From Aureococcus anophagefferens (Eukaryota > Sar > Pelagophyceae > Pelagomonadales > Pelagomonadaceae): a stretch of 64,000 nucleotides of DNA. Shown here one piece after another: positions 1,554 to 57,921 of the stretch. Below the pieces are notes generated by a model. It was given only the letters and a program-made list of their open reading frames with translations. It did not search any database and was not told where the DNA came from. Within the stretch, counting starts at the first letter, position 1. Every line of letters begins with the position of its first letter. Position numbers and translations under genes: made by a program. The stretch lies in the NCBI RefSeq assembly GCF_000186865.1, contig NW_008705572.1, positions 579,384 to 643,383 of the forward strand, in the 5' to 3' direction.

Positions 1554-3906
1554 TCAACCCTTATTAGCGGCCCTTTCCTTCGCGAGCCGCTCCTTCTCCT
1601 GGGCCGCCTTGACCTTGGCCGTCGGATAGGCGCCGCCCTCTGGCGGCAAGTCCAAAATGCCGAGGTCGTCGGGGAGCCGCGGCCGGGGCGCGCGCGCGAC
1701 GGGCGCGGGCTTGTCCATGCCCTCCCACGCGAGCGGCCACTCGCGGTTGAAGAACGGGTAGTGGGGCGCGACGGCCTCGTGGAGCACGCGCTTCTTCACG
1801 GGCGGCGCGGCGTAAAAAAAGGTCGTCTCCGCGTGGCCGTAGTAGGCGCGGAGCCGCGCGACGTAGGACGAGAACGTCGAGAAGAACGTGCCCGTGAACG
1901 TGCGGCAGTTGGGCGCGGACGCGACGAGCTGCTCGACCATGCCCCGCGCGTTCGGGTCGTCCAGGTCCGCCAGCAGGTGTTCAAAGTCCGCGAGGTAGAA
2001 GACGCGGAAGCGGCGCTCGATGGGCGCGAACCAGGCCCGGTCGGCCTCGTCCGTGAGCACGAAGAGCACCTCGCGCGGCGCGACCCACTCGCTGAGCGTC
2101 GCGTTCCACTCGTCGGCGGAGATGCGCACGGACACGTACTGGAGCTCGCCGCGGCGGATGTGCGCCGCCGAGTAGGACCCGCCGGCGGCGAAGGCCGCGA
2201 GCGCGCGGCTCACGCGGCCGGCCGCGCAGACCTGGGCAGGAAAAGGGTGCGACATGCCCAACTTCAAAGGCTCCGATCTCGGTCGTTTTCCGCTCGTTTC
2301 GGCTGATTTTTGGACGAGCGATCATCTCTCGGAGCGCTCGCGAAGCGTGGGTGCTATTTCCGAAACGCGCGCGCGCGGAACACTCACGCTGAAGCGACGT
2401 TGAATCACTCTTGTGCTGCCCTGGCGCAGACGATGTCGTCGCGGTAGCGCGTCGCGTCGCGCGCGAAGCGCTTGTAGTACGCGTCCGTCGGACCGTCGTC
2501 GAAGAGGAAGAAGGTGTACCAGTGCGTGAAGACGCGGTAGCCGAAACTCGCGTTCGCCTCGAAGTGGACCCAGGCCGCGCCCGCGGCTTTCGCGTCGAGC
2601 GGCCGGAGCCGCCGCTTCTCCGTCGCGAACGTCGCCGCGTCCAAGGTCCGCCAGGGCGGGTCCGGCGCCGCGCAGGACCCGAAGAGCACGGCCTCGCGCA
2701 TGGGCGCCCAGCGCGGCGTCGACGTCGCCGCGCGCCGCTCCCACTCGCGCAGGTCGCGCCGCGCCCGCGTGTCGCCGTCGTCGCCCGCGCGCCTCGCCGT
2801 CGCCGCGAGCGCGTCGACGGAGGCCGTCGCCGCGTTCGTCTCCCGGGAAAGGTCGAAGAGGCCCGCGGCCTCGCGGAGGAACGTCGGCGTGTCGACGACC
2901 CGCAACACCTTGCCCAGCGCGTCGAAGTTCAGGAACGCGTCGACGCCGTGGTGCGCGCGCCGGTTGCCCTCGTGCTGCACCTTGAGCAGGTAGAGCCGCT
3001 GCGCCGGCGGCATGACGAGCGTCCGCCCCGTCGCGTGCGCGAAGACGGCCACCGTCTCGAAGGCCATGCGGATGTTGTTCCAGCCGCCGTTGTCCGGCTC
3101 GAAGGTCACGTACTTTGCGGACCTGGGCAGGAAAAGGGTGATTCAAGTTCTCTTCAACATGAGTGTTCCGCGCGCGCGCGTTCCGAAAAAAGCATCTATG
3201 CTTCGAGACCGTTCCGAGAGATGATCGCTCGTCCAAAAATCAGCCGAAACGAGTGGAAAACGGCCGAGATCGGAGCCTTTGAAGTTGGGAATTTCGCTCT
3301 CTTTTCCTGCCCTGTTTCGGACGGGCCGTAGTCCGCGTAGGGGCTCACGCGCGGCTCGGGGTCCCTGGCCCAGTAGCGCATGCCCCGGAAGCCGCGCGAG
3401 CCCTCGAGCACGTCCGCGCAGGCGTCGACCGGTTGCGGTGGATTCTGCGGCGGAGTCCGCGGCGGCGCGGGGCGCCGCGCCGCCGGGGGACGCGGCGCCG
3501 CGGCGGCTCGGAGCGCCTCGAGCTCGGCGCGGGCGGCCTTGCCGCGCTCGCGCTCGTGCGCGAGGGCCGCGCCCGCGTCGCGCAGCTGCGCCTCGAGGCC
3601 GAGCGCCTTCTGCCGGAGCGCCGCCGCGCTCGCCTCCGTCGCCGCGCACGGCGCCGCCGGCGCCGCCGCGGCCGTCGCCACGGCCATGGCCTCCGCCTGC
3701 GCCGCGAGGATGGCCGCGTCGTCCTCGTGGCCCACGTAGCGCCGCACGGACCGCTCCGCCTCCGCCTCCGCCTGCGCCGCGGCGCGCTCCGTCGCGGCGA
3801 CGCCGCCCTCGTGGCGCACGACGAGCGAGCCCATGGCGAGGAGCCACACGGCGACGACGAGGTGCAGCGGCTGCCAGCGCTGGCGGCGCTGCTTGCTGGC
3901 GCCCAT
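1554..3906 (-). CDS. GDP-fucose O-fucosyltransferase family, type II membrane protein
   Basis: Three exons (3906-3323, 3122-2432, 2231-1554) join in frame to 650 residues. Both introns are introner insertions of exactly 200 nt with GT donors. The protein has a short cytosolic basic N-terminus, one membrane anchor at about residues 14-30 (LHLVVAVWLLAMGSLVV), and an Ala/Glu-rich probable coiled-coil stem to about residue 130. The catalytic domain opens with FEPDNGGWNN (201-210) and carries AAHIRRGE near 449-453, hallmarks of the protein O-fucosyltransferase/GT65-68 group. Type II topology suggests the Golgi lumen, with GDP-fucose as likely donor; the acceptor is unknown. The family call is firm from the motifs, the subfamily is not. 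Removing the introns restores YADYGPSAKYVTFEP and RYRDDIVCAAG without loss of residues. Confidence 0.85.
2232..2423 (-). mobile_element. Introner element A (192 bp) in fucosyltransferase intron 2
   Basis: The 192-bp element lies between perfect 8-bp target duplications (GCGCAGAC on the + strand, 2224-2231 and 2424-2431). Terminal inverted repeats contain GGGCAG...CTGCCC. Read along the host gene, the left duplication starts with GT and gives the donor, while the element ends in CAG and gives the acceptor. The intron is therefore 2431-2232, 200 nt, and the exon sequence is preserved exactly. The interior is inverted relative to copies B, C and D when all are read along their host genes. Confidence 0.92.
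3123..3314 (-). mobile_element. Introner element B (192 bp) in fucosyltransferase intron 1
   Basis: This is the second element in the same gene, again 192 bp, with near-identical 8-bp flanks (TTGCGGAC at 3115-3122, TTTCGGAC at 3315-3322; one mismatch). In gene sense the left flank starts with GT and the element ends in CAG, giving a 200-nt GT-AG intron (3322-3123). Interior sequence is clearly homologous to copies A, C and D, including the block TTCGGCTGATTTTTGGACGA. The mismatch in the duplication suggests it is somewhat older than A. Confidence 0.92.
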
Positions 3907-3918
3907 GACGATCGCGCA

Positions 3919-3958
3919 CGAGCGTGCGAGGCAGTCAACGAGCGTGCGAGGCAGTCAA
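3919..3958. repeat. Two tandem copies of a 20-bp unit
   Basis: The 20-bp unit ACGAGCGTGCGAGGCAGTCA occurs twice head to tail, just upstream of the ATG (3906) of the minus-strand fucosyltransferase gene. It lies in the short spacer shared with the divergent gene that starts at 4093. Its function is unknown; it could be leader or promoter sequence. Confidence 0.8.
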
Positions 3959-4092
3959 CGCTCGCGCACACGGTAGCCCTCGATCGCGTACGCCATCGTC
4001 GAGTGATTTTGCCCGCAGGAGAACTTGTTGACGTGCAACACTGACCTCGGCCCGCGCGATGGACAACAACATCGCAGCCCAGTAAGTAAAAG

Positions 4093-5089
4093 ATGCGCTG
4101 GACGCCGCTCGTGGCGCTGCTGCCGGTGCTGGCCGCCAACGCACCGCACCCGAGCGCCGCGGAACTGGCGCGCGCGCGAGCCAGAAGGAGGCGGCTCAGC
4201 TACTTTGGGAAAGCCAGCGAGGGCTGCACGACGCTCCTGAAGGAGAAGAAGCTCGACTGGCTCCTCGAGCCGTTCACGTGCACGCATGCCGTCAAGACGT
4301 CGCCCGTCGCGCTCGTGCTCGGCACGGGCCTCGGCGACACGGGCACGCGGTCCGTCGCCAAGGCCGTCGACGCGCTCGGCGTGCCGACGTGCCACCGCTC
4401 GGGCGCGACGATCAAAGCGCTCAAGGCGTCGAACCGGCGCGACATGACGCCCTTCGCGTCGTCGGGGGCGTGGTTCGACACGCCCGTGGCGTCCGTCTGG
4501 CGCCGCGTCGCGTGCTCGTTCCCCAACTACAAGGTCGTGCACACGACGCGCGCCGGCGACCGCCCGCGTCTCTCGTCGACCGGGAACCACATAAAAGCGC
4601 GCCGTAGGGTACCACCGCGACTTCTCCACGCAGACGAACAGCCACGGCAAGAGCAAGTGCCGCGCGGAGACGACGGAGCACCTCCTCGTCGCGCGCTGCC
4701 TCGAGTACGGCACGACGTGCCCGACGCTCGCGGACGCGCTCGTCGCCTTCGACGGCGTCGCGGCGAGCCTCGACCGCTACGCGCCGCGGGACAAGGTCCA
4801 CGTCATGAACATGTCGACGGGCTTCCGCCTCGTCCCCCTCGCGGCGTTCCTCGGCAAGCCCGTGCCGCGCGGCATGCGGGGCGTGCCGCAGAGCACGGAG
4901 TTCTTCTGCTCCGAGGCGCCCCCGGCGACGGCGGCGAGCCCCGCGCCGGCGCCGGCGCGCCGCCCCGTCGTCGGGAACGTGTCGCGCCTGCCCGCGGGCA
5001 TCCGGACCGTCGCCGCGCCGGCGACGACGACGCGCGTCGTCACGCGGCACCGCCCCGGGAAGAAGAAGAAGAAGAAGCCCCACGTCTAG
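4093..5089 (+). CDS. Sulfotransferase-like secretory-pathway protein
   Basis: Two exons, 4093-4567 and 4608-5089, join in frame to 318 residues if a 40-nt GT-AG intron (4568-4607) is removed; without it the frame is lost. A GC donor a few bases upstream would also keep the frame. The N-terminus is a signal peptide or anchor (MRWTPLVALLPVLAANA). A glycine-rich nucleotide loop, GTGLGDTGTRS at residues 77-87, followed by a CH, FPNYKVVHTTR arrangement resembles PAPS-binding sulfotransferases. The second exon has CRAETTEHLLVARCLEYG and a Pro/Ala-rich, Lys-rich tail. The likely place of action is the Golgi or outside the cell. The family call is an inference from the loop and length. Its stop codon is only 5 bases from the stop of the convergent gene. 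Confidence 0.6.
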
Positions 5090-5094
5090 TCGCG

Positions 5095-5803
5095 TTATTT
5101 CCACTTCGTGTCCGCGCGCGGGATGCTCGAGTAGGTCGTGCGCATGTTCTCGGGCAGCGAGCACGGGCCGACGGAGATGGCGATCTTCTGGCCGTGCATG
5201 GACTGGCGCTCGTAGGCGGGCTGGGCCTTGCGCTCCTCGCGCTCCTCCTTGCGCCGCTTCTTCAGCCGCCGCTGCGTGTCCGCCTTGAGCTTCTCGTGGA
5301 GCGCGTGCTCGCCTGTGTGGAAATCAACCACTGGTTTGGGGGGTCCCCACCAAACTTCAGAACTCTCTATCTCAATCAAATCGAAGTCGATTCGGCTGAT
5401 TTTTGGACGGATCGATTGCTCTCGTCGAGTTCTCGAAGCACGGCAGAAAGCTTTGCGTCGAAACGGTCGCATACGCGCAAATTGAAGTCGGGTTGAAGAT
5501 TTGATTTCCACACAGGTGCTCGCGCCGGTCCGCCTCGAGCTTCGCGTCGGCGTCGACGCCGACGCGCTGCGTCGCGGGCGCCGACGGCGCGACCTCGGGC
5601 GGCGCCTCGACGTTCGCCGTCGCCGTGAGGAACTCCGGCGGCGCCGAGGCGCCCAGGGCGTCCAGCGCGGAGGGGAGCGCGGCGCCCGCCGCCGCCTCCT
5701 CCTCCTCGAGCGGCCGCTTCTTCTCGTTGTCCTCGGCGGGGGCGGCGGGCGCCGCGGCGGGGGCGTCGTCGCCCTCGGACTCGTCGGAGCTGTCGGCGAA
5801 CAT
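5095..5803 (-). CDS. Small acidic/basic protein, unknown function
   Basis: Exons 5803-5524 and 5312-5095 join to 165 residues. I chose the ATG at 5803 (MFADSSDESEGDD); the open frame upstream of it has no ATG. The N-terminal half is acidic and Ala/Pro-rich, and the C-terminal half is a strongly charged helix (LKADTQRRLKKRRKEEREER) followed by IAISVGPCSLPENMRTTYSS. I do not recognise the family; the composition suggests a nuclear or RNA-associated protein, which is only a guess. The intron is introner E with a GC donor, and splicing there restores DRREHALHEKLK exactly. A GT four bases inside the element would also stay in frame, adding four residues. Confidence 0.65.
5313..5515 (-). mobile_element. 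Introner element E (203 bp), second subfamily
   Basis: The element has terminal inverted repeats CTGTGTGGAAATCAA / TTGATTTCCACACAG and a perfect 8-bp target duplication (GTGCTCGC at 5305-5312 and 5516-5523). In gene sense the duplication begins with GC and the element ends in CAG, so the predicted intron is 5523-5313 (211 nt), GC-AG. Its ends differ from the 192-bp group, but part of the interior (TCGGCTGATTTTTGGACG) is shared, so the two groups are related. Confidence 0.9.
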
Positions 5804-6053
5804 GTCACGCGGACGTCGAGAGCGCGCGCGGCTCACCAGGTCCGCCGGCGGGGGCTGAGCTGCACCTTGGCGGCACTACAGCATCACTTTAAGAGACTTC
5901 TCGAGTCTCGACGCGGCTCTTCCTTTCAGCATCCTCTCCTACGTCTGCGCCATCGGCGTCTTCGTCGTGGACCAGCTCCCGGCGCCCACGGCCGTCGTCA
6001 CGGTCGCCCCGACGCTCGCGGGCACCGTCTACCTCTACCGCACTCTTAAGTGA
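5802..6053 (+). CDS. Possible 53-residue membrane protein
   Basis: An ATG at 5802 opens a 38-nt exon (5802-5839) ending in a GT donor. A 90-nt intron with a TTCCTTTCAG acceptor leads to the second exon 5930-6053 in matching phase. The product is a short basic N-terminus followed by one long hydrophobic segment (ILSYVCAIGVFVVDQLPAP... TLAGTVYLY). Supporting points are the pyrimidine-rich acceptor and the phase match; against it are the small size and the fact that its ATG overlaps the ATG of the divergent gene in a shared CATG. The function is unknown. Confidence 0.4.
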
Positions 6054-6277
6054 TGGGCGATGGGCGAGTTCGGCATACCCGGCTGCAGCGTAGATCGCAC
6101 CGGGTCCGGCTAAGCGAATGCAAACACCGCGAGCGGCGCGATCGCGTGCGGATGGCGACGATCGAGGTCGATCGGGTACGTCAATTTGAGGGCTCGTGAA
6201 AATCGTGAAGTGCTCTCTGTGCCGCGGGCGAGGTGGGCCGAGCTGCGGCTAGCTCCGTGTCGAGGTCGAGCATCGCG

Positions 6278-9200
6278 ATGGGCAAAAAGGATAGAGCAGT
6301 GAACGTCAAGGACGTCAAAAAGGCCGAGCGCGAGCGGCGGCAACGACGGGAGTCGCGGCAGCGGAGTCTCATCTCCGAAGAAGTGTCGCTGGCGGATGCT
6401 CGACGCGAGCTCCTGAGCGCCGGGCCGTGGATACCGGGGTTAGAGCCGGTCATCAACGTGCTCATCGGCTTCAGCGACGCCATCGAGGACGAGTCCATGG
6501 ACGAGGAGCAACAGGGGTTTTGCGAGGCCTACTCCGTCGGTTGGGTGAACGAGCAACCGGAATTTTCCGTCGCCGACGGCGGCGGCGAGCAGCTGGAATT
6601 TCTGCTGCGCACCTGCCGCCGCGCGAACCACTGGAAGCTCGACGACGACGACGACGACAAGTTCTGTTCCGACGCGGTCTACGGCGTGGTCGACGGGCTG
6701 CTCAAAGTCTTTCGGCGCGGCGACGCGCGGCCCCTGCGGGTCGGCGAGGCTCGCGAGCTCACGGCGTTGTACCGCCTCGGCGAGGCGCTGACGAACTGCG
6801 AATTCGCGCGCGGGTTCGGCGTCCCTCGACGGACGCGCCGCCGTCCACCGCGCGCCGCAGGTACGAGACCGTCGGCCGCCTGATCCACCTCGGCGGCGCG
6901 GCGAGCTTCGACGCCGTCCTCGAGCGCCTCGAGGCGCACCCCGCCGCGACAGGCCGCGGGCACATGTGCGAGACCGTCAAGGACATCCTCTTCGACGAGG
7001 AGCGGACGAGCCTCCGGCGGTCGCGGAAGCTCGCGGCGTGGGTCGACGAGGCGACCGTGCGGCGCGCGCTCCGCGCGTTCTGCGCCGTCCTCGACGACCC
7101 GCGGTGCGCGCCCGAGACCGGGGGCTGGGTCGCGGGCGCCATCGAAGCCCTCGCCGGGACGGCCGCGTACGCGCGGCTCGCCTGGGGCGCGGCGGGGCCG
7201 TCGCTCCGCGCGGCGTTCGTCCGCGGGTCCGTCGACGACTCGCTCCGCGGCGACCTCGACGACATCCTGCTGACCGCGTCGAAGGGCGCCCACGCGGCCG
7301 ACGGCGGCGGCGGCGGCGACGACGCGGCCTGGGCCTTCTTCTTCGAGGAGTTCCGCAGGGACCCGCGGGGCATCTCCGTGTGCTCCTGCGTGCCGCCGAA
7401 GCCGAACATCTGGTGCGCGAAGGAGCGGGGCAAGGAGACGGCGCGCGCGGTCGCGGTGGCCCTCGAGGTCGCAGCGCGGGCGCTGGGCCTCGGCCGGCAC
7501 GAGCAGGCGGCGTCGGCCGCGCAGGGCGCGCTCCGCGACATATCGCTTCCGGAACGCGGACTTCGACGCGAACGAGCACGAGGCCCGGGCGCGGCTCCTG
7601 CTGGGCCGCGCGAAGTTCGCCCGGGGCGAGCTCGACGAGGCCATCGACGCGCTGGAGAAGGCGCGCCCGCGCCGCTACTGGGGCGACGGGCCGCGCGTCG
7701 TCGACGACGTCGCCGCGGAGGCCCTCTTCCTCACGGCGGCGGCGCAGCTCAAGCTCGGCGACCGCAAGCGCGGCCTCGCGAACGCCAAGGAGCTCGCGCG
7801 GGTCGAGGCGAAGTACGTCTACGACGACGACACGGGCGCCCGGGCCCGCGACGCCTCCGTCGACGTCGCCGGGTGGCGCGCCAAGGCGACGGCGCTGCTC
7901 GCGCCGCCGCCGCCCGCCGCGGCGCCCGCGCCGCCCGCCGCGCCGCGGCCGATCCGGTCGTCGCCGGTCGTCGCCGCGGCGGCGGCGCCGGGCCCGGTGG
8001 CCCGGCGGCTGCGGCGGTGGCGCTGGACCAAGTTCGGCAAGATCGACGAGCTCCGGGAGGACGACGCGCACCGCCTCCACGTCGAGGTCGTGCCATCCCT
8101 CGGGTGCGTCGTCGTGCAGGCCGCGCGGACGCGGCTCTGCGTCTGGGACTTGGCGCGGGGCGCCGTGCGGGGCTGGGTCGACTTTTCGGGCGCGGGCCTC
8201 GACAACGACGACGGCGACGGGTCCTTCCGCCACGTCCGCGCCGCCGGCGGCGACGTGCTCGTGCTCTTCGCGCCGCGCGGCCTGCCGCTGTTCGTCGACC
8301 TCGGCGCGCTCGAGGACGGCGCGACGTGGACGGACGTTGACAGCGCGCGCTACCTCGCGTCCTTCGGCGAGGTCGGCGACGGCCGCGTCGTCGCCCTCGA
8401 GCGCTTCTGCGACGTCGTCGCCCTGGCCGTCTATCCGCCGGAGAAGCCGCGCGTCCTCGCGACGTACGGCCGCGCCGTCGCGGGCCCCGTATCCGTGCAC
8501 GCCTGGGACCGCGACGACCGCCTCGGCGCCCTCTCCGCGACCCGGGCCGGGAGCCTCGAGAAGCCGTCCCTCCTGTGCGCGCCCGCCGCCAAATCCGCCT
8601 GCGAGCTCGCCTTCGCGCGCGAAGACTGCCTCGTGATCGCGCACCACGACAGGCGCGCGCGCGTCTGGACGAGAGGCGACGGTTGTTGGGCCCTCGCCGC
8701 GACGCTCCGCGGCTACGAGGCCTCGCCCTGGCACGTCGCCGCCTCCCGCGACCTCGCCGCCCTCGCGTGCTTCCACGACGGACATCGGACCCCGGCGGAC
8801 GACGACGACGCCGACGACGTCATCGCGCACGACCAAGTCGGCCTCTGGGACCTCGCGAGCGCGCCGTCGCCGGGCGCGCTCGTCTGCCGCCTCGCCGTCC
8901 CCGGCCACGGCGTCCGCGCGATCGCCATCGCCGAAGCCCGGGGCGTGCTCGTCACCGAGCACGACGAGGCAGGCGGGATCCACCTCTGGCGGCTCCTCGC
9001 GCGCGGGGAGACGCCGCGCGCGGTCCACGTCGCCGCGTACGCCCTGCACAGACCCGCCAGCTGCCCCATCAACACGGCCTTCTTGGCGCGCGACGACCAC
9101 GTCTACGTCGGCGGCGTCGGCGTCCTCCTCGCGTTCTCGACCGGCGAATCCGCGCCCCCGTCGTCGGACGACGCGCCCGAGGCGACCGTCGTCAACTGCT

Positions 9201-9367: not shown

Positions 9368-9375
9368 AGCGGCGT

Positions 9376-11770: not shown

Positions 11771-13950
11771 ATGTCGCTCCGCAGCTCACAACACAAGCGC
11801 GGCCGAGGCGTCGACGGTCCGACGCTCGGCGCCGAGCTCGGGCAAACGGCCGTTGATATATACGACGACGACGACGACGACGACGCCCCCGCGGCGAAGC
11901 GCCCCGCCCCCGCGGCGACGGCGGCGGAGTCCGACTGGGAGTCGCAGAACAACGGCGCGCCGCCGCGGCGGTCGCCCCGCCCCGGCGTCGCCGCCGCGCG
12001 CGCGCCGTTCGCGCTGCTCGAGTCGTCGCCGCCCGCGTCGCGGTCGCCCGAGGAGACCGCGGACCCGGCGTGGCGCGCGCTGGAGCGGGTCGGGGGCCGC
12101 AACAACTTCGGCGGGGCGAAGCTCGTCGAGCGGTTCGCGGATTTGGACACGTACTTCCCGAAGGCCGCGCGGCTGCTGCGGCTCTGCGACGCGGGCGACG
12201 GCGTGGGCTACCGGCGGGCGATGCAGGTCTGGGAGGGCCGCGGCCGCAAGGGCGCGGAGAAGGCCCGCCAGGTCAACGAGCACCTGCGGGCGCGGCAGGC
12301 GACGACGTACGCCCTCGTCGGGCCGTCGTCGCCGACGAGCCGCGCCTCGCCGCCGCCCCTGTTCGAGATCGTCGAGCTCCTGCAGCGCGAGCTCAACCTC
12401 CAGGGCTGCGCCGCCGACGTCGTCGCCAAGGCCTGCGCGGAGCTCGACGTCGCCGCGGACAAGGGCTCGCTCGTGGACCGCGCCGAGCGCTGCTGGGACG
12501 TGCTCTACGGCGGCAACGGCCGCGGCGTCGAGGTCGGCGCCGTCGAGCGCGCGTTGACGGTGCGTTTGCCGAAGCCCGGCGCGCTGGACGAGGAGGAGTT
12601 CCAGCTCAAGGCGCGAGGCCTCGAAGCTGCCGCGCGGAAGTCCCTTCGTCAAGACGCGGCGTTCCTCTCCGAGATCGCGGAGACCAGGGCAGCAAAAGAG
12701 AGCGAAATTCCCAACTTCAAAGGCTCCGATCTCGGCCGTTTTCCACTCGTTTCGGCTGATTTTTGGACGAGCGATCATCTCTCGGAACGGTCTCGAAGCG
12801 TGGATGCTTTTCCCGGAACGCGCGCGCGCGGAACACTCACGTTGAAGCGACGTTGAATCACCCTTTTGCTGCCCAGGCGGAGACGCGCGACCGCCTCGCC
12901 CTCGAGGAGGCGCGGGCGAACGTGTCGCGCGCGTCGCCGCACGACTACGTCGGTGACCTGCTCCCGGACCAGCGCCTCAACGAGATCACGCGCGAGTGCT
13001 CGAAGTCGCGGGTGAAACTGACGATCGAAATGTTCGTGCCGCCGCGGCATGATGTCACGGTGCGGCGCGACTTCGACGCGGCGTGCGACGCGTGGCTCGC
13101 CGCCCGCGCGGCGGGCGACGCGGACGCCAAGGCCAAGGCCAAGGCGGACATCCTGCGGCTCGCGACGGACACGTCGTTGCAGGTCCGCGACGCGGACTGG
13201 CTCCGGGACCGGGACCCGTACGGCGAGTCGAGCCTGCGGAAGCGGCTCATGGACGTGGCGCGCCGCGCGGGCGGCCCCAAGTGCGGCTGCGGCAAGTGCA
13301 AGGGCATCAACCTCGCGTCCGTCGAGAACCGGGGCCTCCTGGACTTCGACCACGCCGGCAAGGAGAAGAAGCGCGACGCGGCGGGCAGGCTGATCCAGCC
13401 GTGCGAGGTCGACAAGTTCGGCTCGCGCGGCGAGCTCGTCGACGAGTGGACCGCGTGCAATGCAATCTGCGCGGTCGGCCACCGGTGCAACACGCAGGAC
13501 GAGATCAACGCGGCGAAGCTCGCGCGGCGCGCGTTCGCGGAGCTGAGCGACGGCGCCGTGACCACGGAGCAGCGCGCGGACCGCGAGGCCAAGGTCATGT
13601 TCAACAACGAGGTCAAGCGCGGCATCGGCGCGTGCGCGTACTGCGGCCTCAGGGTCATCGAGGGGTACGAGTCCGCATTCGACCTCGCGCACAAGATGGG
13701 CTACGAGTTCCTGAAGTACCGCGGCGCCGTAGGCGACGGCATGGCCGGCCTCTGCGCCAACGGCGCGCGCTTCAGCGAGGAGTGGCTCGACGCCTACTTC
13801 GCCGAGCTCGCCATGTGCATCATGCTCTGCGCGAACTGCCACCGCAAGGAGGACACGAACAAGGCGTACGAGCGGGACGTCGAGGAGCGCTTCGCGCGCC
13901 TCGCGTACCTCGCCGTCAAGCTCGAGCGCCTCGACGCCCAGCGCGCGTGA
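11771..13950 (+). CDS. HNH-endonuclease-like zinc protein
   Basis: Exons 11771-12676 and 12877-13950 join to 659 residues across introner C (GC-AG). I use the ATG at 11771 (MSLRSSQHKRG); earlier in-frame codons are not ATG. The N-terminal third is acidic and low-complexity, followed by a helical domain with a KLVERFADLDTYFP block. The C-terminal half holds two zinc-type modules. Near 437-450 is CGCGKCKG followed by LLDFDHAGKEKK; near 554-622 is CAYCGLRV, AFDLAHK and LCANCHRKED. The D-H plus CxxC pattern resembles HNH/McrA-type nucleases. This may be a DNA-acting enzyme in the nucleus. The nuclease reading is inferred and catalytic competence is not shown. Without splicing, a TGA in the element would remove the whole HNH-like half. 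Confidence 0.65.
12685..12876 (+). mobile_element. Introner element C (192 bp) with GC donor
   Basis: The 192-bp element has a perfect 8-bp duplication GCGGAGAC (12677-12684 and 12877-12884). In gene sense the intron runs 12677-12876, 200 nt, starts with GC from the duplication and ends with AG from the element. Splicing gives LSEIAETRDRLAL. No GT occurs at the required position, so this insertion appears to have made a GC-AG intron. Confidence 0.92.
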
Positions 13951-22069: not shown

Positions 22070-22855
22070 TTACGTCTGGCTGGCCGCGCCCCACAGCTTG
22101 AGCGTCTTGTCGTGGGACCCGGACACGACGCGGTCGCCCGACGGGAACACCGCGACGCTGCTGACGTCGTTCGAATGCCCTTTCCACGTCGCGAGGCATT
22201 CGTCCGTGCTCACGTCCCACAGCATGAGCGTCTTGTCCTCGGACCCAGACACGACGCGGTCGCCCGACGGGAACACCGCGACGCTGTTGACGCCGTTCAA
22301 ATGCACTTTCCACGTCGCGAGGCAGTTGCCCGTGCTCGCGTCCCACAGCTTGAGCGTCTCGTCGTCGGACCCGGACACGACGCGGTCGCCCGACGGAAAC
22401 ACCGCGACGCTGTTGACGTAGGTCGAATGCCCTTTCCACGTCGCGAGGCAGTTGCCCGTGCTCCGGTCTCGCGCGTCCCACAGCTTGAGCGTGTTGTCCC
22501 AAGACCCGGACACGACGCGGTCGCCCGACGGGAACACCGCGACGCTCACGACGTTGTCCGAATGCCCTTTCCACGTCGCGAGGCAGTTGCCCCTGCTCCG
22601 GTCCCACGCGTCCCACAGCTTGAGCGTCTTGTCCGTGGACCCGGACACGACGCGGTCGCCGGACGGAAACACCGCGACGCTGCTGACGTCGTTCGAATGC
22701 CCTTTCCACGTCGCGAGGCATTCGCCCCTGCTCCGGTCCCACGCGTCCCACAGCTTGAGCGTCTTGTCCGTGGACCCTGACACGACGCGGTCGCCGGACG
22801 GAAACACCGCGACGCTGGTGACGCCCTTCGAGTGCCCTTTCCACCCGTTCCTCAT
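22070..22855 (-). CDS. WD40 protein made of six nearly identical repeats
   Basis: The frame from the ATG at 22855 encodes 261 residues, essentially all repeat: six units of the form WKGHSxxVxSVAVFPSGDRVVSGSxDxTLKLWDA, some with an extra DRSRGNCLAT segment. The units are almost identical at DNA as well as protein level, so the array is recently duplicated or gene-converted. Six blades may form an open or incomplete propeller, or part of one. No signal peptide or other domain is visible. The ATG overlaps the ATG of the divergent gene. The frame stays open upstream to 23107, but that part is antisense to a gene-like frame. The partner and role are unknown. Confidence 0.7.
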   Translation of the reverse strand: MRNGWKGHSKGVTSVAVFPSGDRVVSGSTDKTLKLWDAWDRSRGECLATWKGHSNDVSSVAVFPSGDRVVSGSTDKTLKLWDAWDRSRGNCLATWKGHSDNVVSVAVFPSGDRVVSGSWDNTLKLWDARDRSTGNCLATWKGHSTYVNSVAVFPSGDRVVSGSDDETLKLWDASTGNCLATWKVHLNGVNSVAVFPSGDRVVSGSEDKTLMLWDVSTDECLATWKGHSNDVSSVAVFPSGDRVVSGSHDKTLKLWGAASQT

Positions 22856-27755: not shown

Positions 27756-30700
27756 GCGCTCCCGGAGTGCCGCGCGTGCCGGGGCCGCCACGTGAAGCAC
27801 ACCTGCGGCAAGGGCCGACCCGGCAAGAAGGCGAAGAAGCCGAAGGCGCGGTGCAAGCCCGCGGCGAAGGCGCCCAAGGCCTCGAAGAAGAAGAAGGCGC
27901 CGCAGCCCGACGACGAGCCCGCGGCGACGGAGTCCTTCGGCGGCGGGTCGCGGCCCAGCGACGGCGGCGGCGGCGGCGACGGCGACGACGGCGACGCGGC
28001 GGCGCGCGCCGTGCAGCTCATGCTCAAGCCGCCGTACGACCCGACGCGCGTGCCGTGGGCGCCGCGCGACGACGCGGGCTTCGCGGCGGCGTCGAGCGTC
28101 GAGGCCGTCGAGGGCCGGTCGGCCTGGGTCGACCTGCTGCCGGAGATGATGTGGGTCTGCAACGAGGCCGCGCGCCGCGCGACCGTCGCCGAGGACTCGG
28201 GCGCGAAATTCTTCGACAAGCCCCTCGCGGCGGACTACATGTACGACCGCGTCGCCCTCGCCGCCGACGAGCCCTGGGGCCTCGTGGCCCGCGACGACGC
28301 CACGGGCCAGATGCAGGGCTTCATCATGCTCGGCACGTTCGCGAGCTGGGACCGGACGCTCCGCTGGGCGTCGCGGGACCCGCGGGCCTGGGGCGTCGCG
28401 CAGTACGACCCCAACTGCGGCCGGTCCCACGGCAAGCGGCGCCAGTCCAAGGCCGACGACGACGACGACGACGGCGACGACGAGATCGCGGGCGGCGACG
28501 CGAAGTCGCGGTCCGACGAGCGGAAGCTCCGCGCGTACATGGCCGCGGCGACGGGCGCGGCGGCGGCGGGCGCGGCGCACGCGGCGACGGAGAAGCGCGA
28601 CGCCGACGGCGACCTCACGGACGACCTCGAGGCGACGCCGCGGCGTTTGGCGGAGTCGGACGCGCGCATGACCGAGTGGCCCGACCTCCTCGAGGTGTCG
28701 CTCCTCGGCGGCCTGGGCTGCGGCGGCCGCCTCCTGAGCGAGGCCCTCTTCCAGGCGAAGACGCGCGCGCCGCGGGTCGTGCGCTTCGCCGCGACGGCCG
28801 GCGAGGACGACGCCGCGTCCGCGGGCTCCGACGACGAGTACCGCGCGCCCGCGTCCTTCGTCGTGCTCCAGGCGACGGAGACGGCCGTGCCCTTCTACGA
28901 GCGCAGCGGCTTCGCGCGCGTCGGCGCGCTGGCCAAGTACCGCGACCGCCGCGACATGCCCGAGCTCGCGTACCGCCACTGGAACGACCGCATCTGCGTC
29001 GCGGAGAAGCACGGCGCGTCCCACATGATGGCGCTGCGGCTGACGTCCTTCGCGGGGCTCCCCGGCGGCAAGCGGGGCGGCGAGCAGCCCCGGGCGCCGC
29101 CGCGGCCGCCCGCGGACGCGGCCGCGCGCGCGCGCGCGCGCGACGACGTCTTGATGATCGCGCGGTCGGCCATCTCCTGCAACACGAACGTCATCGGCGG
29201 CTCCGGCGTCTTCCGCGAGCTCGTCGTCATCGCCCAGGGCCGCGCGGGGCCCTGGGGCGCCGACGACGACGGCCTCGCGCGCGCGCTCGCCAAGGTGCTC
29301 GTCGTCTTCAAGTCGAACGCGTGCGGCTCCGCGAAGCAGGTCCTCCGCACGGACGTCCTCGGCGACGACCACGCCGAGGACGGCCGCTACCGGCGCCACA
29401 CGCCCAAGGCGCCCCGCGCGAAGAAGGGCGCCCTCGACTCCGACGACGACGGCGACGACGACCCGGACCACGCGCGCGCCCGCGCGGAACTCTTCGACCC
29501 AACTTCACTGTGCGCGTATTGAATGTTTTGATACGAGCACCGCCGCTGTGCTTCGAGCACTCGACGAGAGCGACCGATTCGTCCAAAAATCAGCCGAATC
29601 GACTTCGATGTGACCGAGCTCGAGAGTTCCGAAGTTCGGTCGGGACGTCCCGGCTCACCGGTCGATTTCCGCGCAGGCGCCCGCCGCGAGCCGCACGCAG
29701 TGCGTCTCCGTCGTGCTCCGCCTCGCCCAGCCGGCCGCGGTCGCGGTCAAGGCCGAGGACGGCGGCGCCGAGGAAACCGCCGCCGACGGCGGCGACGGCG
29801 ACCTGCCGCCGCCTGACGCGCTCGCGCTCGCCGCCGACGTCGACGACGCGCTCGGCGTCGTCGGCGACGTCGACGACGACGACGTCCTCGGCGCCGTCGA
29901 CCTCCTCGACGTGCCCATCGACGGGCCCCTGCTCGCCGACGGCGCCGACGGCTTCGAGTTCGCGCCGCCGCCCTTCGACGGCGACGGCGACGGCGGCGGC
30001 GGCGACGGCGGCGACGCGTCCGAGGACGACGTGCGGTGCCAGGCGTGCCGCGGGCGCCACGTGCGCCACACGTGCGGCAAGGGCAAGCACGGCCGCCCGA
30101 AGAAGGGCGCGGCCAAGGCCAAGGGCGGCGCCGCGGCCGCGCGCGCGGCCGCCGCGGCCGCGGAGCGGCGCCGCGCGGCGGACGCCGCGCGGGAGCGCGC
30201 GGACGCGCGGAAGGCGCCCGTCGTCGGGCCGCCGCCCCTCGAGGCCTTCGTGCGGCGGCCCTGCCGCCGCGCGCCGCTGACCACGGCGTCCGTGGCCGTG
30301 TCCCTCGTCGGCGCGGGCGCGGAGTTCCGCCTCCTCGCGGCGTTCCCGCGGAAGCTCCGGCGCCGCGCGCGCGCGGACGCGCTGTCGAGCGCGCTCGCGG
30401 CCGTGCGCCGCGCCTCGCGCGAGGACGGCGAGCGCGGGGGCGCGAGCCCGCGCCACGCCAAGCCGGGCTCCTGCCTCTCGCCCACGGGCGGCCACAGCCC
30501 GGGCTCGAAGAAGCGCGGCCGCCCGCGCCAGGCGGACCGCGGCCACGCGGTCGACGCGTACCAGCCGCCGCCGCTCGACGACGCCATGCACCTCGACCCG
30601 GACAGCGACAGCGACAACGAGGAGGACACGGCGGCCGAGCCGGAGAACGGCCTCAAGATCCGCGCGGCGGCCGCGTCTTTCGCTTCTTTCTTCGCCGGCC

Positions 30701-43792: not shown

Positions 43793-44003
43793 NNNNNNNN
43801 NNNNNNNNNNNNNNNNNNNNNNNNNNNNNNNNNNNNNNNNNNNNNNNNNNNNNNNNNNNNNNNNNNNNNNNNNNNNNNNNNNNNNNNNNNNNNNNNNNNN
43901 NNNNNNNNNNNNNNNNNNNNNNNNNNNNNNNNNNNNNNNNNNNNNNNNNNNNNNNNNNNNNNNNNNNNNNNNNNNNNNNNNNNNNNNNNNNNNNNNNNNN
44001 NNN
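43793..44003. other. Assembly gap (211 N)
   Basis: An unbroken run of N lies between the J-domain gene start and the BASS transporter. The true gap length is unknown; the 5' exons of the transporter probably lie here. Confidence 0.99.
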
Positions 44004-52041: not shown

Positions 52042-52271
52042 GGTTGTTGGAGCTGTCGCACGAAGCCGCCGGCGCCGGGACGCACCGCCGACGGGCGCGC
52101 ACGGTTGGGAGGACGCTGCCCAGCGGCACCCTGCCCACAAGTTTGGGCCAATCGTGAAGAAAAGTGCTCTTGGGAGTTGACCTTGAGAAGCTCAAGCACG
52201 CGTGTAAAAACCGACAGCCTAGAGAGCATTAGAGGGCTGGCATCGAGGCTGCGCGGGCGCCGTCGCGCACC

Positions 52272-55200
52272 ATGGACATCGACGAGGGCTCCTACGAGGC
52301 CTCCTACCGGTCCCACGGGTCGTCCCACCAGTTCCCGTTCAATTCGCGGCCGTCGTCGGCGCGGAAGCAGCGAGAGAGCGGCGTCGTCGAGGTCGACGAC
52401 GAGCCCGGCGCGAGCCTCCTCGCGGGCCTCGGCGCGGCCGTGCTGGCCCCGGCGGCCTTCGTCGGCGAGGCCGCCGCGCCGTCCGGCGAGGAGGCGGCGG
52501 CGCTCCGCGGGGCGCCCGCGCCCGCGCCCGCGGCGGCCGGCGACGAGGACCTCGCGTCCCGCATCGGCAGCCTCGAGGCCAACCTGCTGGCCCCGCAGCC
52601 CGTCGTGTCGCTGCTGCCCGCCGACGCCGTCACGCAGACCATGGCCCAGGTGCTCCACGCACTCCGGGGCGTCGAGCGGCTCATCGAGGCCGAGGCCGCG
52701 GCCGTCGACGACAAGATCGAGGCCGCGCTGAAGAAGAAGTCCTTCCAGGACCTCAAGGCCGGCTCGGCGCGCGCGTCGACGGTCAACGCCCTCGACAAGG
52801 CCATCGTCGGCGCGCGCGCGGGCGTCGTGCCCGAGAAGGCCGAGGCCATCGAGCGGCCGAAGACGGCCGCGGAGCGGCGCCGGAGCTCGCTCGGTCTGGA
52901 CGAGGGCATGCGGCGGTCCGCGGTGCAGGCGTTGGTCGCCCAGATGATCGTCGAGAGCTCGCGGCGGCACCAGATCGAGACCGACGCGTTGAAGCGCCGC
53001 GTGGCCGTGCTGGAGCGCAACGCCGCGGCGCGCGGGCCGTCGCGGGGCGACGGCGACGGCGACGCGTTGGCCGCGTACGACGACCCGGAGCTCGCGCACC
53101 ACGTCTCCGAGCTCGAGGAGGCGACGCGGGCGACGCGCCACACGCTCACGAGCCTGACGTCCGACGTCGTCGGGCTCAAGGCGCGCACGGCGGGCCTCGA
53201 GCGGTTCCGCCGCGAGGAGGAGGTCCGCGAGAAGACGTTCCAGGCGTCCGTCGACGACGCGAACAAGTCCCTCAAGCGCCTCGCGACCTACGCCGCCGAC
53301 GCGAACGCGCACCACACGCGCACGTGCCGCCAGCTCGACCACAAGCTCAGCGTGCTGGCGACGAACGTCGAGGGCGACCCGCGCGCGTCCGCCGCGGGCC
53401 TCTGGGCGCGCATCGTCGACGAGGGCTCGTCGGACGCGTCGACGTCCTACGCCGACGAGGAGGAGGCGGCGTTGGCGGCTTTAGCGGGCGACGAGGGCGA
53501 GGACACGCTCCGACGACGCCGCGAGTCCGCGGACCGGGGCGCGGTCGCGCGGCGGCGCTGGCGCTGGGCGATCCGCCGGACGGTCGTCGCGAACCGCGCG
53601 CGGAACCACGGGTCTACCATGCTCGACTGCGTCCGCCTCGGCGAGCGGAGCCTGCTGGAGCGCGTGCGCGGCGCGGAGCACGCCTTATTCATGCTCAGCC
53701 AGAACGAGGCCGGCGTCGCGCGCCACGTCACGGAGATGCGGCGCCGGAGCCTCGACCTCGACGACGAGAAGAGCCGCGACCTGGCGCGGCGCATGCGGCG
53801 CGCGGCGCGGCTGCGCGAGGAGTCCGCGCGCGTCATGGACGAGGCCAAGGCGGCGCTCGCGCGGCTCCAGGTCGACGGCTGGCTCATGGCGGACAAGCAG
53901 ACCATCGTCGACCCGCGCTACGAGCACGCCGCGCACGCGATCGCCGGCTTCGTGAAGCTCCGGGAGACGGAGAAGGTGCGGTCCACGCGCCTGTCCGCCG
54001 CCCTCGCCGTCGCCCAGCACGAGCTCGCGACCGTCAAGGACGACCTCCAGCACGAGGCGCGGGCCGCGGAGTCCGCGCAGCTCCAGGCGGACGTCCACAA
54101 CGCGGAGCGGGACCTAAGGACCGCGCGGATGACGGACGCGATCGTCGCGTCCGTGCTCAAGAAGCACGAGGCCCTGGTGCTGGACGCGCTGGGCAGCTCC
54201 CTCGACGAGTTCGGCCCGGGCGCCGCGGGCTCCGCGCCGCCGCCGAAGCGGCTCGAGAGCGCCGTCGCGTTCCTCAAGAAGCGCGTCAACGAGCTCGGCG
54301 CGAAGTTCAACGCGCTCGAGGAGGAGGTCGAGCACGACCACGACCTCATCGAGCACGGCGCCCTCGAGCACGCCGCCGAGCGGAGCCCCGCGCCCAAGCG
54401 GCGGGGGCAGTCGGGGGGGGCGGACGCGGGCGCGATCTTCGAGGTCCGCCACCAGCTCCGCGCGCTCCAGCAGGCGAGCGCCAAGGCCGAGACGCGCCTC
54501 TCCATGAAGGCCGACGGCTTCATGCTGACGGACGTGCTCACGCGGCTCAACAGCCTCGCCGACGCGGAGGCCTCCGGGTCCGCGGACGCGAAGCGTTTGG
54601 CGCGCGACTGCGGCCACCTCCGCGACGCGTTCCCGCGGCTCGTCAAGTGGACCAAGGACTACGTGGACCGGCGTTTGGGCGACTTCGAGGATTTGGCGGC
54701 GACGCAGCGCATCGACGCCGAGGTCGACGGCGAGCCGACGCTGCGCATCACGGGCGCGAACATGGACCAGGGCTGCACGATCGCCTCGCCGCTCGACGCG
54801 CACGCCGCGCTCCACGCGGCGGCCATGGCGCCCTTCCGGCCGGCGTCGGCGGCGGCGACGGCCCGCGCTAGGAGCCCGGCGCGACACCTCGAGGCGCCCG
54901 ACGCGACGCCCCTCGACGACGGCCGCCGCCACCCGGCGCGGCGCCTCAAGGCCGCGCCCGGCCCGCGGCCCGCGTCCGCGAGCCCCGACGTCGCCGCGCC
55001 GCCGGGCGTCGTCGAGCGCGCCAAGCTCGGCAAGCGGCCCGCGACGTCCGGCGGCGACAAGAAGCGGCCGAACCCGCGGAGCCCCGCGGCCGTCGCCGGG
55101 AACCGCAACCCGCCGCGGTCCGCGACGCCGCCGGCCGAGAAGAAGCGCGACGACCTCGACCCGAGCCGCCTCGCGGGCTACGACGACCGCCACGTCGCCC

Positions 55201-55433
55201 ACCTCGACCGCGGCTCGCCCGCGGCGTCGACGGTCTTCTCCGCGGTGTCGCACCCGCCCGCGAGCCAGCTCATCCTCATTCCCGGGCCCGGCGACAGCCA
55301 GGACGACGCGGACCCCCGCTCCCCGCCGCCCCGCATGTCCTACGGCGACGGCAGCGCCCTCGAGCCGCCCACGCCCCACTCCCCGACGCCGTCCTCCTGG
55401 ACGCCCCAGACGCGCGGCGGCGGCGCGCCCTAG
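52272..55433 (+). CDS. Large coiled-coil protein, unknown function
   Basis: A single exon encodes 1,053 residues from the ATG at 52272. The first 100 residues are low-complexity. Long heptad-rich helices run about 100-390 (VLHALRGVERLIEAEAAA, AVQALVAQMIVESSRRHQIE, LTSLTSDVVGLKARTAGLE) and 440-830. ESAVAFLKKRVNELGAKFNA and WTKDYVDRRLGDFEDLAAT lie in the second stretch. The last 200 residues are Pro/Arg/Ser-rich and probably disordered. The layout resembles centrosomal, flagellar or cytoskeletal coiled-coil proteins, but no diagnostic motif supports a name. Confidence 0.75.
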   Translation: MDIDEGSYEASYRSHGSSHQFPFNSRPSSARKQRESGVVEVDDEPGASLLAGLGAAVLAPAAFVGEAAAPSGEEAAALRGAPAPAPAAAGDEDLASRIGSLEANLLAPQPVVSLLPADAVTQTMAQVLHALRGVERLIEAEAAAVDDKIEAALKKKSFQDLKAGSARASTVNALDKAIVGARAGVVPEKAEAIERPKTAAERRRSSLGLDEGMRRSAVQALVAQMIVESSRRHQIETDALKRRVAVLERNAAARGPSRGDGDGDALAAYDDPELAHHVSELEEATRATRHTLTSLTSDVVGLKARTAGLERFRREEEVREKTFQASVDDANKSLKRLATYAADANAHHTRTCRQLDHKLSVLATNVEGDPRASAAGLWARIVDEGSSDASTSYADEEEAALAALAGDEGEDTLRRRRESADRGAVARRRWRWAIRRTVVANRARNHGSTMLDCVRLGERSLLERVRGAEHALFMLSQNEAGVARHVTEMRRRSLDLDDEKSRDLARRMRRAARLREESARVMDEAKAALARLQVDGWLMADKQTIVDPRYEHAAHAIAGFVKLRETEKVRSTRLSAALAVAQHELATVKDDLQHEARAAESAQLQADVHNAERDLRTARMTDAIVASVLKKHEALVLDALGSSLDEFGPGAAGSAPPPKRLESAVAFLKKRVNELGAKFNALEEEVEHDHDLIEHGALEHAAERSPAPKRRGQSGGADAGAIFEVRHQLRALQQASAKAETRLSMKADGFMLTDVLTRLNSLADAEASGSADAKRLARDCGHLRDAFPRLVKWTKDYVDRRLGDFEDLAATQRIDAEVDGEPTLRITGANMDQGCTIASPLDAHAALHAAAMAPFRPASAAATARARSPARHLEAPDATPLDDGRRHPARRLKAAPGPRPASASPDVAAPPGVVERAKLGKRPATSGGDKKRPNPRSPAAVAGNRNPPRSATPPAEKKRDDLDPSRLAGYDDRHVAHLDRGSPAASTVFSAVSHPPASQLILIPGPGDSQDDADPRSPPPRMSYGDGSALEPPTPHSPTPSSWTPQTRGGGAP

Positions 55434-55609
55434 GCGCGACGACGCGCCCGCGCGCGTGGGCGCTACTGCTTTATATGGGCGTGCCGCCGAACAGGGGGGT
55501 GGGGGGGGGAACAGGCAGGCCGCCGCTCGCGGCGAGGCGGCGCGGCCGCGTTCGGTTGGTTCTTCTTGTGAGGGCCGGCGTCGCTCGCCGGACCCGCCCG
55601 GCGCGTCGC

Positions 55610-57921
55610 CTAGTCCTCGTAGGAGAAGTTGGAGGTCTGGTCGAGGAACATGAGGTCGACGTAGGTCGGGAGGGTCCAGAGGCTCGCGGGGCAGACCTTC
55701 TCGGCGGCGTCGCAGTGCGCGCGGATGGCCTCCATGGTCTCGAGGCGGAGGTCGCGCGCGAGCGTCGCCTGCGCCTCGCCCTCGGACTCCTCGATGGCGT
55801 GGACGGCGGCCTCGAGCGTGCCGACGGCGGCCTCGAGGTCGGACAGCGGGCCGAGGCCCGCGGCCTTGACCGACGGAATCACGTGCTTGTTGATCATGTC
55901 GATCATGCACTTGGCCTCCATGTCGACGACGCCGACGTAGTGGTCCAGCAGGATCTGCTGGCGCGCGGCGCACTCCTCCGCGCGGAGCACGCCCATCTCC
56001 TCGAAGAGGGCCGTGTTCTTCGGCGCGCTGTAGCGGCAGATGGCCTCGACGCCGGAGTCGATGCGCCAGACGCCGCGCTTCGTGAGCATGTCCTGGTTCG
56101 CCTCGTCGTAGTTGTCGCCGTTGAAGACGACCTTGGGCACGTGCGTCTTGATGAGCTCCGTGGCGACGTCGCGGGCGGACTCGCCGGCGTCCATGCGGTC
56201 CGCGACCTTCTTGAAGGCCGCCGCCGTGATGGTGTTGAGCACCGTGTTGACGAGCGACACGTTCTGCGCGGAGCCGACGGCGCGGAACTCGAAGCGGTGG
56301 CCGCCGTAGGGGAACGGCGACGTGCGGTTGCGGTCCTGGGCGGGGATGTCGAGCTTCTTCATGGCGGCGACGCCCATGTCGAGGGCCTTGGTGCCGGGCT
56401 TGTACTCGGCCTCGCCGCCGGCCGCGTAGGCCTCGAGGTAGCTCGTCATGTCCTCGCCGAGGTACGTCGACACGATCGCCGGCGGCGCCTCGCACGCGCC
56501 GAGGCGGAAGTCGTTGCCCGGCGACGCGATGGCCATGCGGAGGAGGTCGCCGTGGTCGTCGACGGCGCCGACGATGGCCGCCATGATCGTCGGGAAGACG
56601 TCGGGCGAGCCCGACTTGTCCGTGACCTGGCCGACGTTGAGCAGGTTCACGCCCTCGGAGGTGCCGATGGACCAGTTGTTGTGCTTTCCCGAGCCGTTGA
56701 CGTTGTTGAAGGGCTTCTCCTGGAGGAGCGCCGCCAGGCCGTACTGGGGCGCGACCTCCTCGATGATCTGCATGAGCGTCACGTTCTGGTCGATCTGCGT
56801 CGTCGCCGTCCCGAACTGCGGCGCGAACTCGTACCTGGGCGGCACAAGAGTGATTCAACGTCGCTTCAACGTGAGTGTTCCGCGCGCGCGCGTTCCGGAA
56901 AAAGCATCCGTGCTTCGAGGCCGTTCTAAGAGATGATCGCTCGTCCAAAAATCAGCCGAAACGAGTGGAAAACGGCCGAGATCGGAGCCTTTGAAGTTGG
57001 GAATTTCGCGCTCTTGTGCTGCCCTGACTCGTACTGGTTCGGCGCGACCTCGCGGTGGCGCGTGACCAGGGGGATGCCGAGGCGGAAGCACTGGGCCTGG
57101 ATCTCCTGCATGCAGGCCAGCGCCGCCGTCGCCGACGACGGCGACGCCATGTAGTGGTCGCACATCTCCTGGCCGCGGGGCGCGTCCGCGCCCATGATCG
57201 TCCGGCCCGTCATCATGAGGTCGAGGCGCTGCACGTACTGGTCGCGCGGGATGAGGAAGATCTCCTGCTCGAGGCCGATGTTCGACTGGAGGCCGCCGAC
57301 GTCGAAGCCGAGCTTGGACAACAGGCGCGTGCCCTCGGAGTTGAGCGCGTCGACGGACCGGAGCAGCGGCGTCTTCTCGTCGAGCGCGTCGCCGTAGTAG
57401 GAGCAGAGCGTCGAGGGGATGAAGATGCAGTCGCCGCGGAGGAAGATGGGGCTCGTCGGGTCCACGGACACGTAGCCGCCCGCGCAGTGCGTGCCGCGGA
57501 GGCCGCCGTTCGGGTAGCTCGACCCGTCCGTCTCGCCCGCGAGGATGTCCTTGCCCTTGAGGTCCCAGACGGGCTTGCCCGCGGCATCGAACTTGAAGAA
57601 GGCGTTCTGCACCTGGCCCACGAGGCCGTGGCGCACGCCGGACGCGCCCAGGGGCTGGAAGACGTGGCAGAACGACGTCGCGTCGTTCTCCGTCGCCCAC
57701 TCGAGCACCGCCGCCGCGACCTTGTCCGCGGCGGCGGCGTCCTTGGTCCACTCGCTGTTGTCGAGCGTGCCGGCGGCGAGGCCCTGCTTGCTGAGGTAGG
57801 ACTCGGCGACGGCCCCCTTGAAGACGTGGTCGCCGTAGCCCTCGAGGAGGCCCGACACGGAACGCGTCGTCGCGGCACTGCGGCCCTTGGGGAGGACGGA
57901 CTTGAGGGCGTTGAGCATCAT
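55610..57921 (-). CDS. GLNN: Type III glutamine synthetase (GSIII)
   Basis: Exons 57921-57035 and 56834-55610 join across introner D to 703 residues, the usual length for GSIII. The enzyme makes glutamine from glutamate and ammonia with ATP. Seen in order: GLVGQVQNAFFKFDAAGKPVW, SSYPNGGLRGTHCAGGYVS, GLEQEIFLIPRDQY, TRHREVAPNQYEFAPQFG, FNNVNGSGKHNNWSIGT (catalytic core) and NRTSPFPYGGHRFEFRAVGS. The N-terminus (MMLNALKSVLPKGRSAATTR) is basic and could be an organelle presequence. Splicing at the introner restores NQYEFAP exactly. The C-terminal 150 residues are the helical GSIII extension. Confidence 0.95.
56835..57026 (-). mobile_element. Introner element D (192 bp) in GSIII
   Basis: The 192-bp copy has perfect 8-bp duplication ACTCGTAC on the + strand (56827-56834 and 57027-57034). 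In gene sense the duplication is GTACGAGT: it donates the GT 5' splice site, and the element donates the CAG 3' site, making a 200-nt intron (57034-56835). It interrupts a core catalytic region of an essential nitrogen-assimilation enzyme, so efficient removal must occur. Confidence 0.93.

What the first reader, a model, noticed from the sequence alone, without database searches (positions are those of the whole stretch)
2224..57034. Six introner insertions in 55 kb, each using an 8-bp target duplication as the 5' splice site
Copies at 2232-2423, 3123-3314, 5313-5515, 12685-12876, 29480-29676 and 56835-57026 all have inverted repeats, an 8-bp duplication and an end in CAG. In every case the duplication starts with G followed by T or C, which becomes the donor, and removing flank plus element restores the host frame with no change. 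Introner elements of this MITE-like type are known from Aureococcus and Micromonas. The density, the uniform 192-bp length and the mixed GT/GC donors here make a very clean data set for intron birth.
Basis: partly seen in the sequence, partly recalled or inferred. Interest (0 to 1): 0.9.

Follow-up and report, generated by a model that had tools for sequence, protein, structure and literature searches.

The report
Known brown-tide alga introners, confirmed
Six short mobile DNA elements sit inside genes of the brown-tide alga Aureococcus and appear to be cut out of the RNA as new introns, which is a phenomenon already published for this species.

Summary
All six copies have terminal inverted repeats, a flanking 8-bp duplication (exact in 4 of 6, 7/8 in 2 of 6), a 3' CAG, and a donor copy starting GT (3) or GC (3) on the gene strand. 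Removing one duplication plus the element leaves an open frame at each site. Four copies are 192 bp; the other two (203 and 197 bp) are a second family sharing the core.

The window is Aureococcus anophagefferens itself: a named AURANDRAFT protein matches it with no mismatch on a contig of exactly this length. Introners that carry one splice site and co-opt the other from the duplication are published for this species (citing papers and recall). So: real, but already known.

Counts made here: 2230 exact cores genome-wide. After 100 listed acceptor ends the exon starts GC 54, GT 45, GA 1. 37 of 37 scored family-A copies lie sense and in frame in coding sequence, against 35-39% of random sites. 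The family-A acceptor differs by one base from the end of a rare non-introner sibling. No autonomous partner was found. Splicing was not tested with RNA.

The parts
2232..2423 (-). Introner copy 1, family A, core antisense to the gene; predicted intron 2232-2431 (200 nt), donor GTCTGCGC at 2424-2431, acceptor CAG at 2232-2234 (minus strand), exon copy of the duplication 2224-2231
   Evidence: host O-fucosyltransferase exons
3123..3314 (-). Introner copy 2, family A; predicted intron 3123-3322 (200 nt), donor GTCCGAAA at 3315-3322, exon copy GTCCGCAA at 3115-3122 (7/8)
   Evidence: same O-fucosyltransferase gene
5313..5515 (-). Introner copy 3, family B (203 bp, CAG acceptor available at both ends); predicted intron 5313-5523 (211 nt), donor GCGAGCAC at 5516-5523
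   Evidence: host without Pfam match
12685..12876 (+). Introner copy 4, family A; predicted intron 12677-12876 (200 nt), donor GCGGAGAC at 12677-12684
   Evidence: host without Pfam match
29480..29676 (+). Introner copy 5, diverged family B (197 bp); predicted intron 29472-29676 (205 nt), donor GCGCGCGC at 29472-29479, exon copy GCGCCCGC (7/8)
   Evidence: upstream host frame without Pfam match
56835..57026 (-). Introner copy 6, family A; predicted intron 56835-57034 (200 nt), donor GTACGAGT at 57027-57034
   Evidence: P0001 reads across the site
57037..58164 (-). Glutamine synthetase III open frame upstream of copy 6
   Evidence: Pfam GSIII_N
55613..56833 (-). Glutamine synthetase III open frame downstream of copy 6
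   Evidence: Pfam Gln-synt_C and Gln-synt_C-ter; solved relative 7u6o
2432..3121 (-). O-fucosyltransferase open frame between copies 1 and 2
   Evidence: Pfam O-FucT
1557..2231 (-). O-fucosyltransferase open frame downstream of copy 1 (Pfam hit below the curated cut-off)

Best explanation
The six elements are introners of Aureococcus anophagefferens: short non-autonomous DNA transposons (probably hAT-type, inferred) that insert into exons with an 8-bp target duplication. The upstream copy of the duplication supplies the 5' splice site (GT or GC, rarely GA). The element's own end supplies the 3' splice site (pyrimidine-rich tract plus CAG). Splicing at these points removes the element and one duplication copy and leaves the coding sequence unchanged. 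Shown here from sequence: anatomy, duplication, donor rule, sense orientation, reading frame. Inferred: actual splicing in this strain, transposase identity, and that retention depends on splicing. In family A the acceptor is a single-base change (second base of the terminal repeat, A to T) relative to the end of a sibling element. Exactly one end is altered in most copies, and it can be either end relative to the body. Family B carries the acceptor at both ends and so can be spliced in either orientation.
For: Six copies with duplication, inverted repeats and CAG. 2230 exact cores genome-wide, control 0. 1508 family-A acceptor ends, control 16. After the 100 listed ends the exon copy of the duplication starts GC 54, GT 45, GA 1, while position 8 is A19 C38 G31 T12. 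In 37 family-A copies with both duplication copies read, the donor copy starts GC 19, GT 17, GA 1. Genome-wide only 11 acceptor ends are followed by a base other than G (control 6) and 23 by GA or GG (control 6). 37 of 37 family-A copies scored have both flanks coding in the sense direction with a continuous frame, against 648 of 1673 and 462 of 1327 random positions. Of 16 family-B records 13 pass, all 13 with a GY donor (8 GC, 5 GT) and CAG; 2 are mixed and 1 is a false boundary. Of 30 loci taken in listing order from the core search (L009-L038), 26 pass. P0001, 98.8-99.7% identical to the glutamine synthetase exons, reads across the copy-6 site as predicted.
Against: No RNA was examined. 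P0001 could come from a spliced cDNA or from an empty allele; its DNA is not held. Some copies break the rule: L062 and L066 have no usable donor at the duplication; L033 is antisense to coding with a non-GY duplication; L025 and L032 are decayed; L020 and L007 (family B) gave mixed coding calls. L012 and L015 pass the coding test, but their two duplication copies differ widely. The codon model was trained on nine window exons, four of which border copies 1, 2 and 6, so those three of the 37 are not independent. PMC7789003 describes A. anophagefferens introners as having canonical splicing motifs (passage), which sits uneasily with half GC donors, although the same paper also lists the species among those with many non-canonical introns. 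The hAT assignment has no transposase behind it: PF05699 and PF14372 gave nothing, but the controls rang nowhere.
Confidence: 0.95

Rival explanations
1. The elements are ordinary MITEs that interrupt and inactivate genes and are not spliced.
For: MITE anatomy (inverted repeats, 8-bp duplication), no RNA evidence here. A rare sibling element with the same repeats and no acceptor exists.
Against: 37 of 37 scored family-A copies are sense and in frame in coding sequence (control). After 100 of 100 listed acceptor ends the exon copy of the duplication starts GT, GC or GA. Open frames continue on both sides, in two cases in recognisable enzymes.
Confidence: 0.02
2. The copies spread by reverse splicing of excised RNA rather than by a transposase.
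For: Copies are strongly concentrated at sense, splice-competent coding positions, which an RNA-based route would predict.
Against: 8-bp duplications (8/8 in 30 of 37) and inverted repeats are DNA-transposon marks. The co-opted donor is not part of the repeated unit. A sibling element with the same repeats, one copy with a perfect duplication, lacks a splice end. Family B is used in both core orientations (7 forward and 6 reverse among the 13 that pass).
Confidence: 0.04
3. The GY start of the duplication is a target preference of the transposase, not a consequence of splicing.
For: G at position 1 in 100 of 100; few copies outside coding sequence, which purging alone does not easily explain.
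Against: A symmetric target preference should show C at position 8; position 8 is A19 C38 G31 T12. Of 7 exception loci with an acceptor at both ends, 6 were called antisense to coding when read from the end with the non-GY duplication, and the seventh was mixed. Among the 23 ends followed by GA or GG (control 6), 20 are GA and 3 GG although GG is commoner than GA in the window.
Confidence: 0.1

Closest known systems
Introner elements of Aureococcus anophagefferens (Huff, Zilberman and Roy 2016, Nature 538:533; not held, known from passages of citing papers and recall)
   Same: Same species; DNA transposon with inverted repeats and duplication; one splice site carried, the other co-opted from the duplication (recall; co-option and both orientations also in a passage of PMC10228655). 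A characteristic length of about 210 bp is cited in PMC9481584.
   Different: Nothing established as different. The donor counts, the one-base origin of the acceptor and the sibling element could not be checked against the original text.
Introners surveyed by Gozashti et al. 2022 (PMC9860276)
   Different: Its Fig. 2 example of that layout is Symbiodinium with a 4-bp duplication; its Aureococcus sp. example carries both splice sites and adds 12 bp, unlike the copies here.
hAT-superfamily MITEs (family traits recalled)
   Same: 8-bp duplication; CAGGG terminal repeats at one end of family A and at both ends of the sibling element.
   Different: In family A the other end is CTGGG; family B ends are CTGTGTGG; no transposase found.

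Membership tests
Introner (DNA-transposon type) | Many near-identical introns dispersed through the genome | tested here: met
   2230 exact cores; 37 scored family-A copies average 92% pairwise identity
Introner (DNA-transposon type) | Terminal inverted repeats and target duplication | tested here: met
   duplication 8/8 in 30, 7/8 in 4, 6/8 in 3 of 37
Introner (DNA-transposon type) | One splice site in the element, the other co-opted from the duplication | tested here: met
   at sequence level only:
Introner (DNA-transposon type) | Reading frame unchanged after removal | tested here: met
   6 of 6 in the window; 37 of 37 family-A copies scored
Introner (DNA-transposon type) | Spliced in RNA | not testable with these tools
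   No transcript data; P0001 is consistent with splicing or with an empty allele
hAT superfamily | 8-bp target duplication | tested here: met
hAT superfamily | Terminal repeats starting CAGGG or similar (recalled) | tested here: inconclusive
   Sibling: both ends. Family A: one end only. Family B: CTGTGTGG
hAT superfamily | hAT transposase encoded by an autonomous partner | tested here: inconclusive
   PF05699 and PF14372 gave no match, but controls rang nowhere; a search with the 502-bp sibling found only the two known copies

The most novel reading that the evidence does not exclude
Insertion or retention is coupled to splice competence more tightly than random insertion plus purging allows. 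About a quarter of random sites fail the coding test (402 of 1673 and 383 of 1327), and about a fifth of dinucleotides in the window are GY in a given direction. If non-coding insertions were harmless, random insertion with loss of harmful copies should leave mostly non-coding copies (my arithmetic, not a simulation). Instead 26 of 30 core-selected loci are sense, coding and in frame. Of 31 exception loci examined out of 34 non-GY acceptor ends, 2 are copies without a usable donor at the duplication and 2 more stay unsettled. This would require strong targeting to coding DNA, or a splicing-linked step in propagation. Decayed copies are under-counted by these patterns.
Probability: 0.2. Interest if true: 0.6.

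Novelty: already known. Interest (0 to 1): 0.3.

Why it matters
Introners are a well-documented route to mass intron gain, and this species is one of the founding examples (recall). The confirmation adds no new kind of system. The useful additions are a donor tally in which GC is as common as GT, a sibling element suggesting that the acceptor is one base away from an ordinary transposon end, and a measured scarcity of copies outside spliceable coding positions. The last is a testable puzzle about how such elements choose or keep their sites.

Tried and rejected
Autonomous partner: Pfam hAT families PF05699 and PF14372 gave no match in this genome, with uninformative controls; a search with the 502-bp sibling element found only the two known copies. 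A homologue search with the joined frame of the 12685 gene, meant to test a GC donor, found nothing. The Huff 2016 text is not held. The idea that family A never carries acceptors at both ends was dropped: 7 such copies turned up among 31 exception loci. The idea that non-coding or unspliced copies are wholly absent was softened after L033, L025 and L032. A single switch of the acceptor end between sides was not supported: 3 label changes on a tree of 37 copies, against a shuffle mean of 10.3 and minimum of 6. That count is biased, because L001-L008 were chosen by similarity to copy 1 and L044-L055 by an end pattern. The coding model was trained on nine Pfam-matched window exons, one of them below the curated cut-off and four of them bordering copies 1, 2 and 6.
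Full report
What was checked. The six claimed copies were read and measured. On the gene strand each follows an 8-bp donor copy starting GT (2232, 3123, 56835) or GC (5313, 12685, 29480) and ends in CAG. The duplication is exact in 4 of 6 and 7/8 in 2 of 6. Four copies are 192 bp (family A); 5313 is 203 bp and 29480 is 197 bp (family B, different inverted repeats, shared core; the two are 77% identical over 190 bases). A relaxed search found no seventh copy in the window.

Host genes. Gene strands follow from the open frame across the restored junction, from the codon model and, for two genes, from Pfam. Copies 1 and 2 lie in an O-fucosyltransferase gene (the frame downstream of copy 1 scores below the curated cut-off), and copy 6 in a type III glutamine synthetase (solved relative 7u6o). 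The frames submitted for the hosts of copies 3, 4 and 5 have no Pfam match (the part downstream of copy 5 was not submitted). Predicted introns are 200, 200, 211, 200, 205 and 200 nt, none a multiple of three. A 703-aa database protein (P0001, source jgi), 98.8-99.7% identical to the glutamine synthetase exons, reads across the copy-6 site as predicted. This fits splicing or an empty allele; the tools cannot tell which.

Which organism. The window lies on a contig of 1,412,611 bases. The protein AURANDRAFT_27837 [Aureococcus anophagefferens] is listed with a longest contig of 1,412,611 bases and aligns to the window with 0 mismatches and one gap. The window is therefore the public A. anophagefferens assembly (strain CCMP1984 by recall).

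Genome-wide picture. The 17-mer core occurs 2230 times, 0 for the reversed control. The family-A acceptor end pattern occurs 1508 times (control 16); this is a lower bound, since the pattern bars T at its last place. After the 100 listed ends the exon begins GC 54, GT 45, GA 1. This reads the exon copy of the duplication, not the donor copy; in 37 copies where both were read the donor copy starts GC 19, GT 17, GA 1. GC is three times commoner than GT in the window as a whole, and duplication position 8 shows no comparable bias. A family-B end pattern occurs 955 times (control 0).

Exceptions. Acceptor ends followed by a base other than G number 11 (control 6) and by GA or GG 23 (20 GA, 3 GG; control 6). 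I examined 31 of these 34, those returned as loci. Five are not clear elements (one of them, L067, has the core but no matching boundary). Seven have an acceptor at both ends; 6 of these were called antisense and 1 mixed when read from the listed end. Thirteen have a GA donor in a sense, continuous coding frame. Two with a GA start could not be settled (L077, next to N; L082, mixed). Two have a GT or GC start in the upstream copy (L083, L089). Two have no usable donor at the duplication (L062, L066).

Coding context. A codon model from nine Pfam-matched window exons was used to call strand and frame in 210 bp on either side. 37 of 37 family-A copies that met a strict end pattern were sense on both sides with a continuous frame; phases 0, 1, 2 were 19, 8, 10. 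The 37 are 4 window copies and 33 from loci chosen by similarity to copy 1, by the core, by an end pattern, and one (L040) because its exon starts GA. Three window copies border training exons. Random positions gave sense and continuous in 648 of 1673 (window, outside training exons and elements) and 462 of 1327 (loci). Of 16 family-B records, 13 passed, 2 were mixed (L007, L020) and 1 was a false boundary (L029). For the 30 loci taken in listing order from the core search (L009-L038), 26 pass, 1 is mixed (L020), 1 is antisense with a non-GY duplication (L033) and 2 are decayed (L025, L032).

Ends and origin. With both ends left free in the search, the 37 family-A copies all have a 3' CAG and a 5' CAG (35), CGG (1) or CCG (1). 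A sibling element of 479 bp and 502 bp (two copies found) has the same terminal repeats but CAG...CTG ends; the 502-bp copy has a perfect 8-bp duplication, the 479-bp copy has none that I could see. The introner acceptor thus differs from the sibling's end by one base; which came first is inference. The acceptor lies at either end relative to the body (25 sense, 12 antisense, a sample partly chosen by similarity). The hAT assignment is an inference from recalled family traits; no transposase was found.

Literature. I read passages of PMC9860276, PMC9481584, PMC7789003 and PMC10228655. Huff et al. 2016 is not held and is cited from these papers and recall. The passages state that introners with direct repeats and inverted repeats are known in A. 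anophagefferens, that introners can co-opt splice sites and insert in both orientations, and that families co-opting a donor from the duplication, and GC and GA donors, are known in general. PMC7789003 calls the A. anophagefferens splicing motifs canonical, which I could not reconcile with the GC share seen here. Searches made. I do not claim that the donor tally, the sibling element or the coding bias is unpublished for this species.

Verdict. Real, correctly interpreted, already known. The remaining open question with some interest is why so few copies lie outside spliceable coding positions.

Noticed in passing
L039 977-1455 (G000:C1:618576-619054) and L049 1501-2002 (G000:C32:77547-78048): Two 479/502-bp elements with family-A inverted repeats but CAG...CTG ends, similar outer 150 bp and different middles; one has a perfect 8-bp duplication. 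Possibly non-introner siblings moved by the same transposase.
   Followed up: partly
L070-L076, L078, L080, L081, L085, L087, L088: Thirteen family-A copies whose donor copy starts GA in an in-frame sense coding context, suggesting functional GA-AG introns.
   Followed up: partly
L060, L064, L065, L068, L079, L084, L086: Family-A copies with an acceptor at both ends, apparently used in the opposite direction with a GY donor.
   Followed up: partly
window 22085-22844: Array of overlapping 238-nt copies spaced 126-135 bp, 61-89% identical to the reference copy (family D3).
   Followed up: no
window 43793-44003: Run of 211 N inside the window.
   Followed up: no
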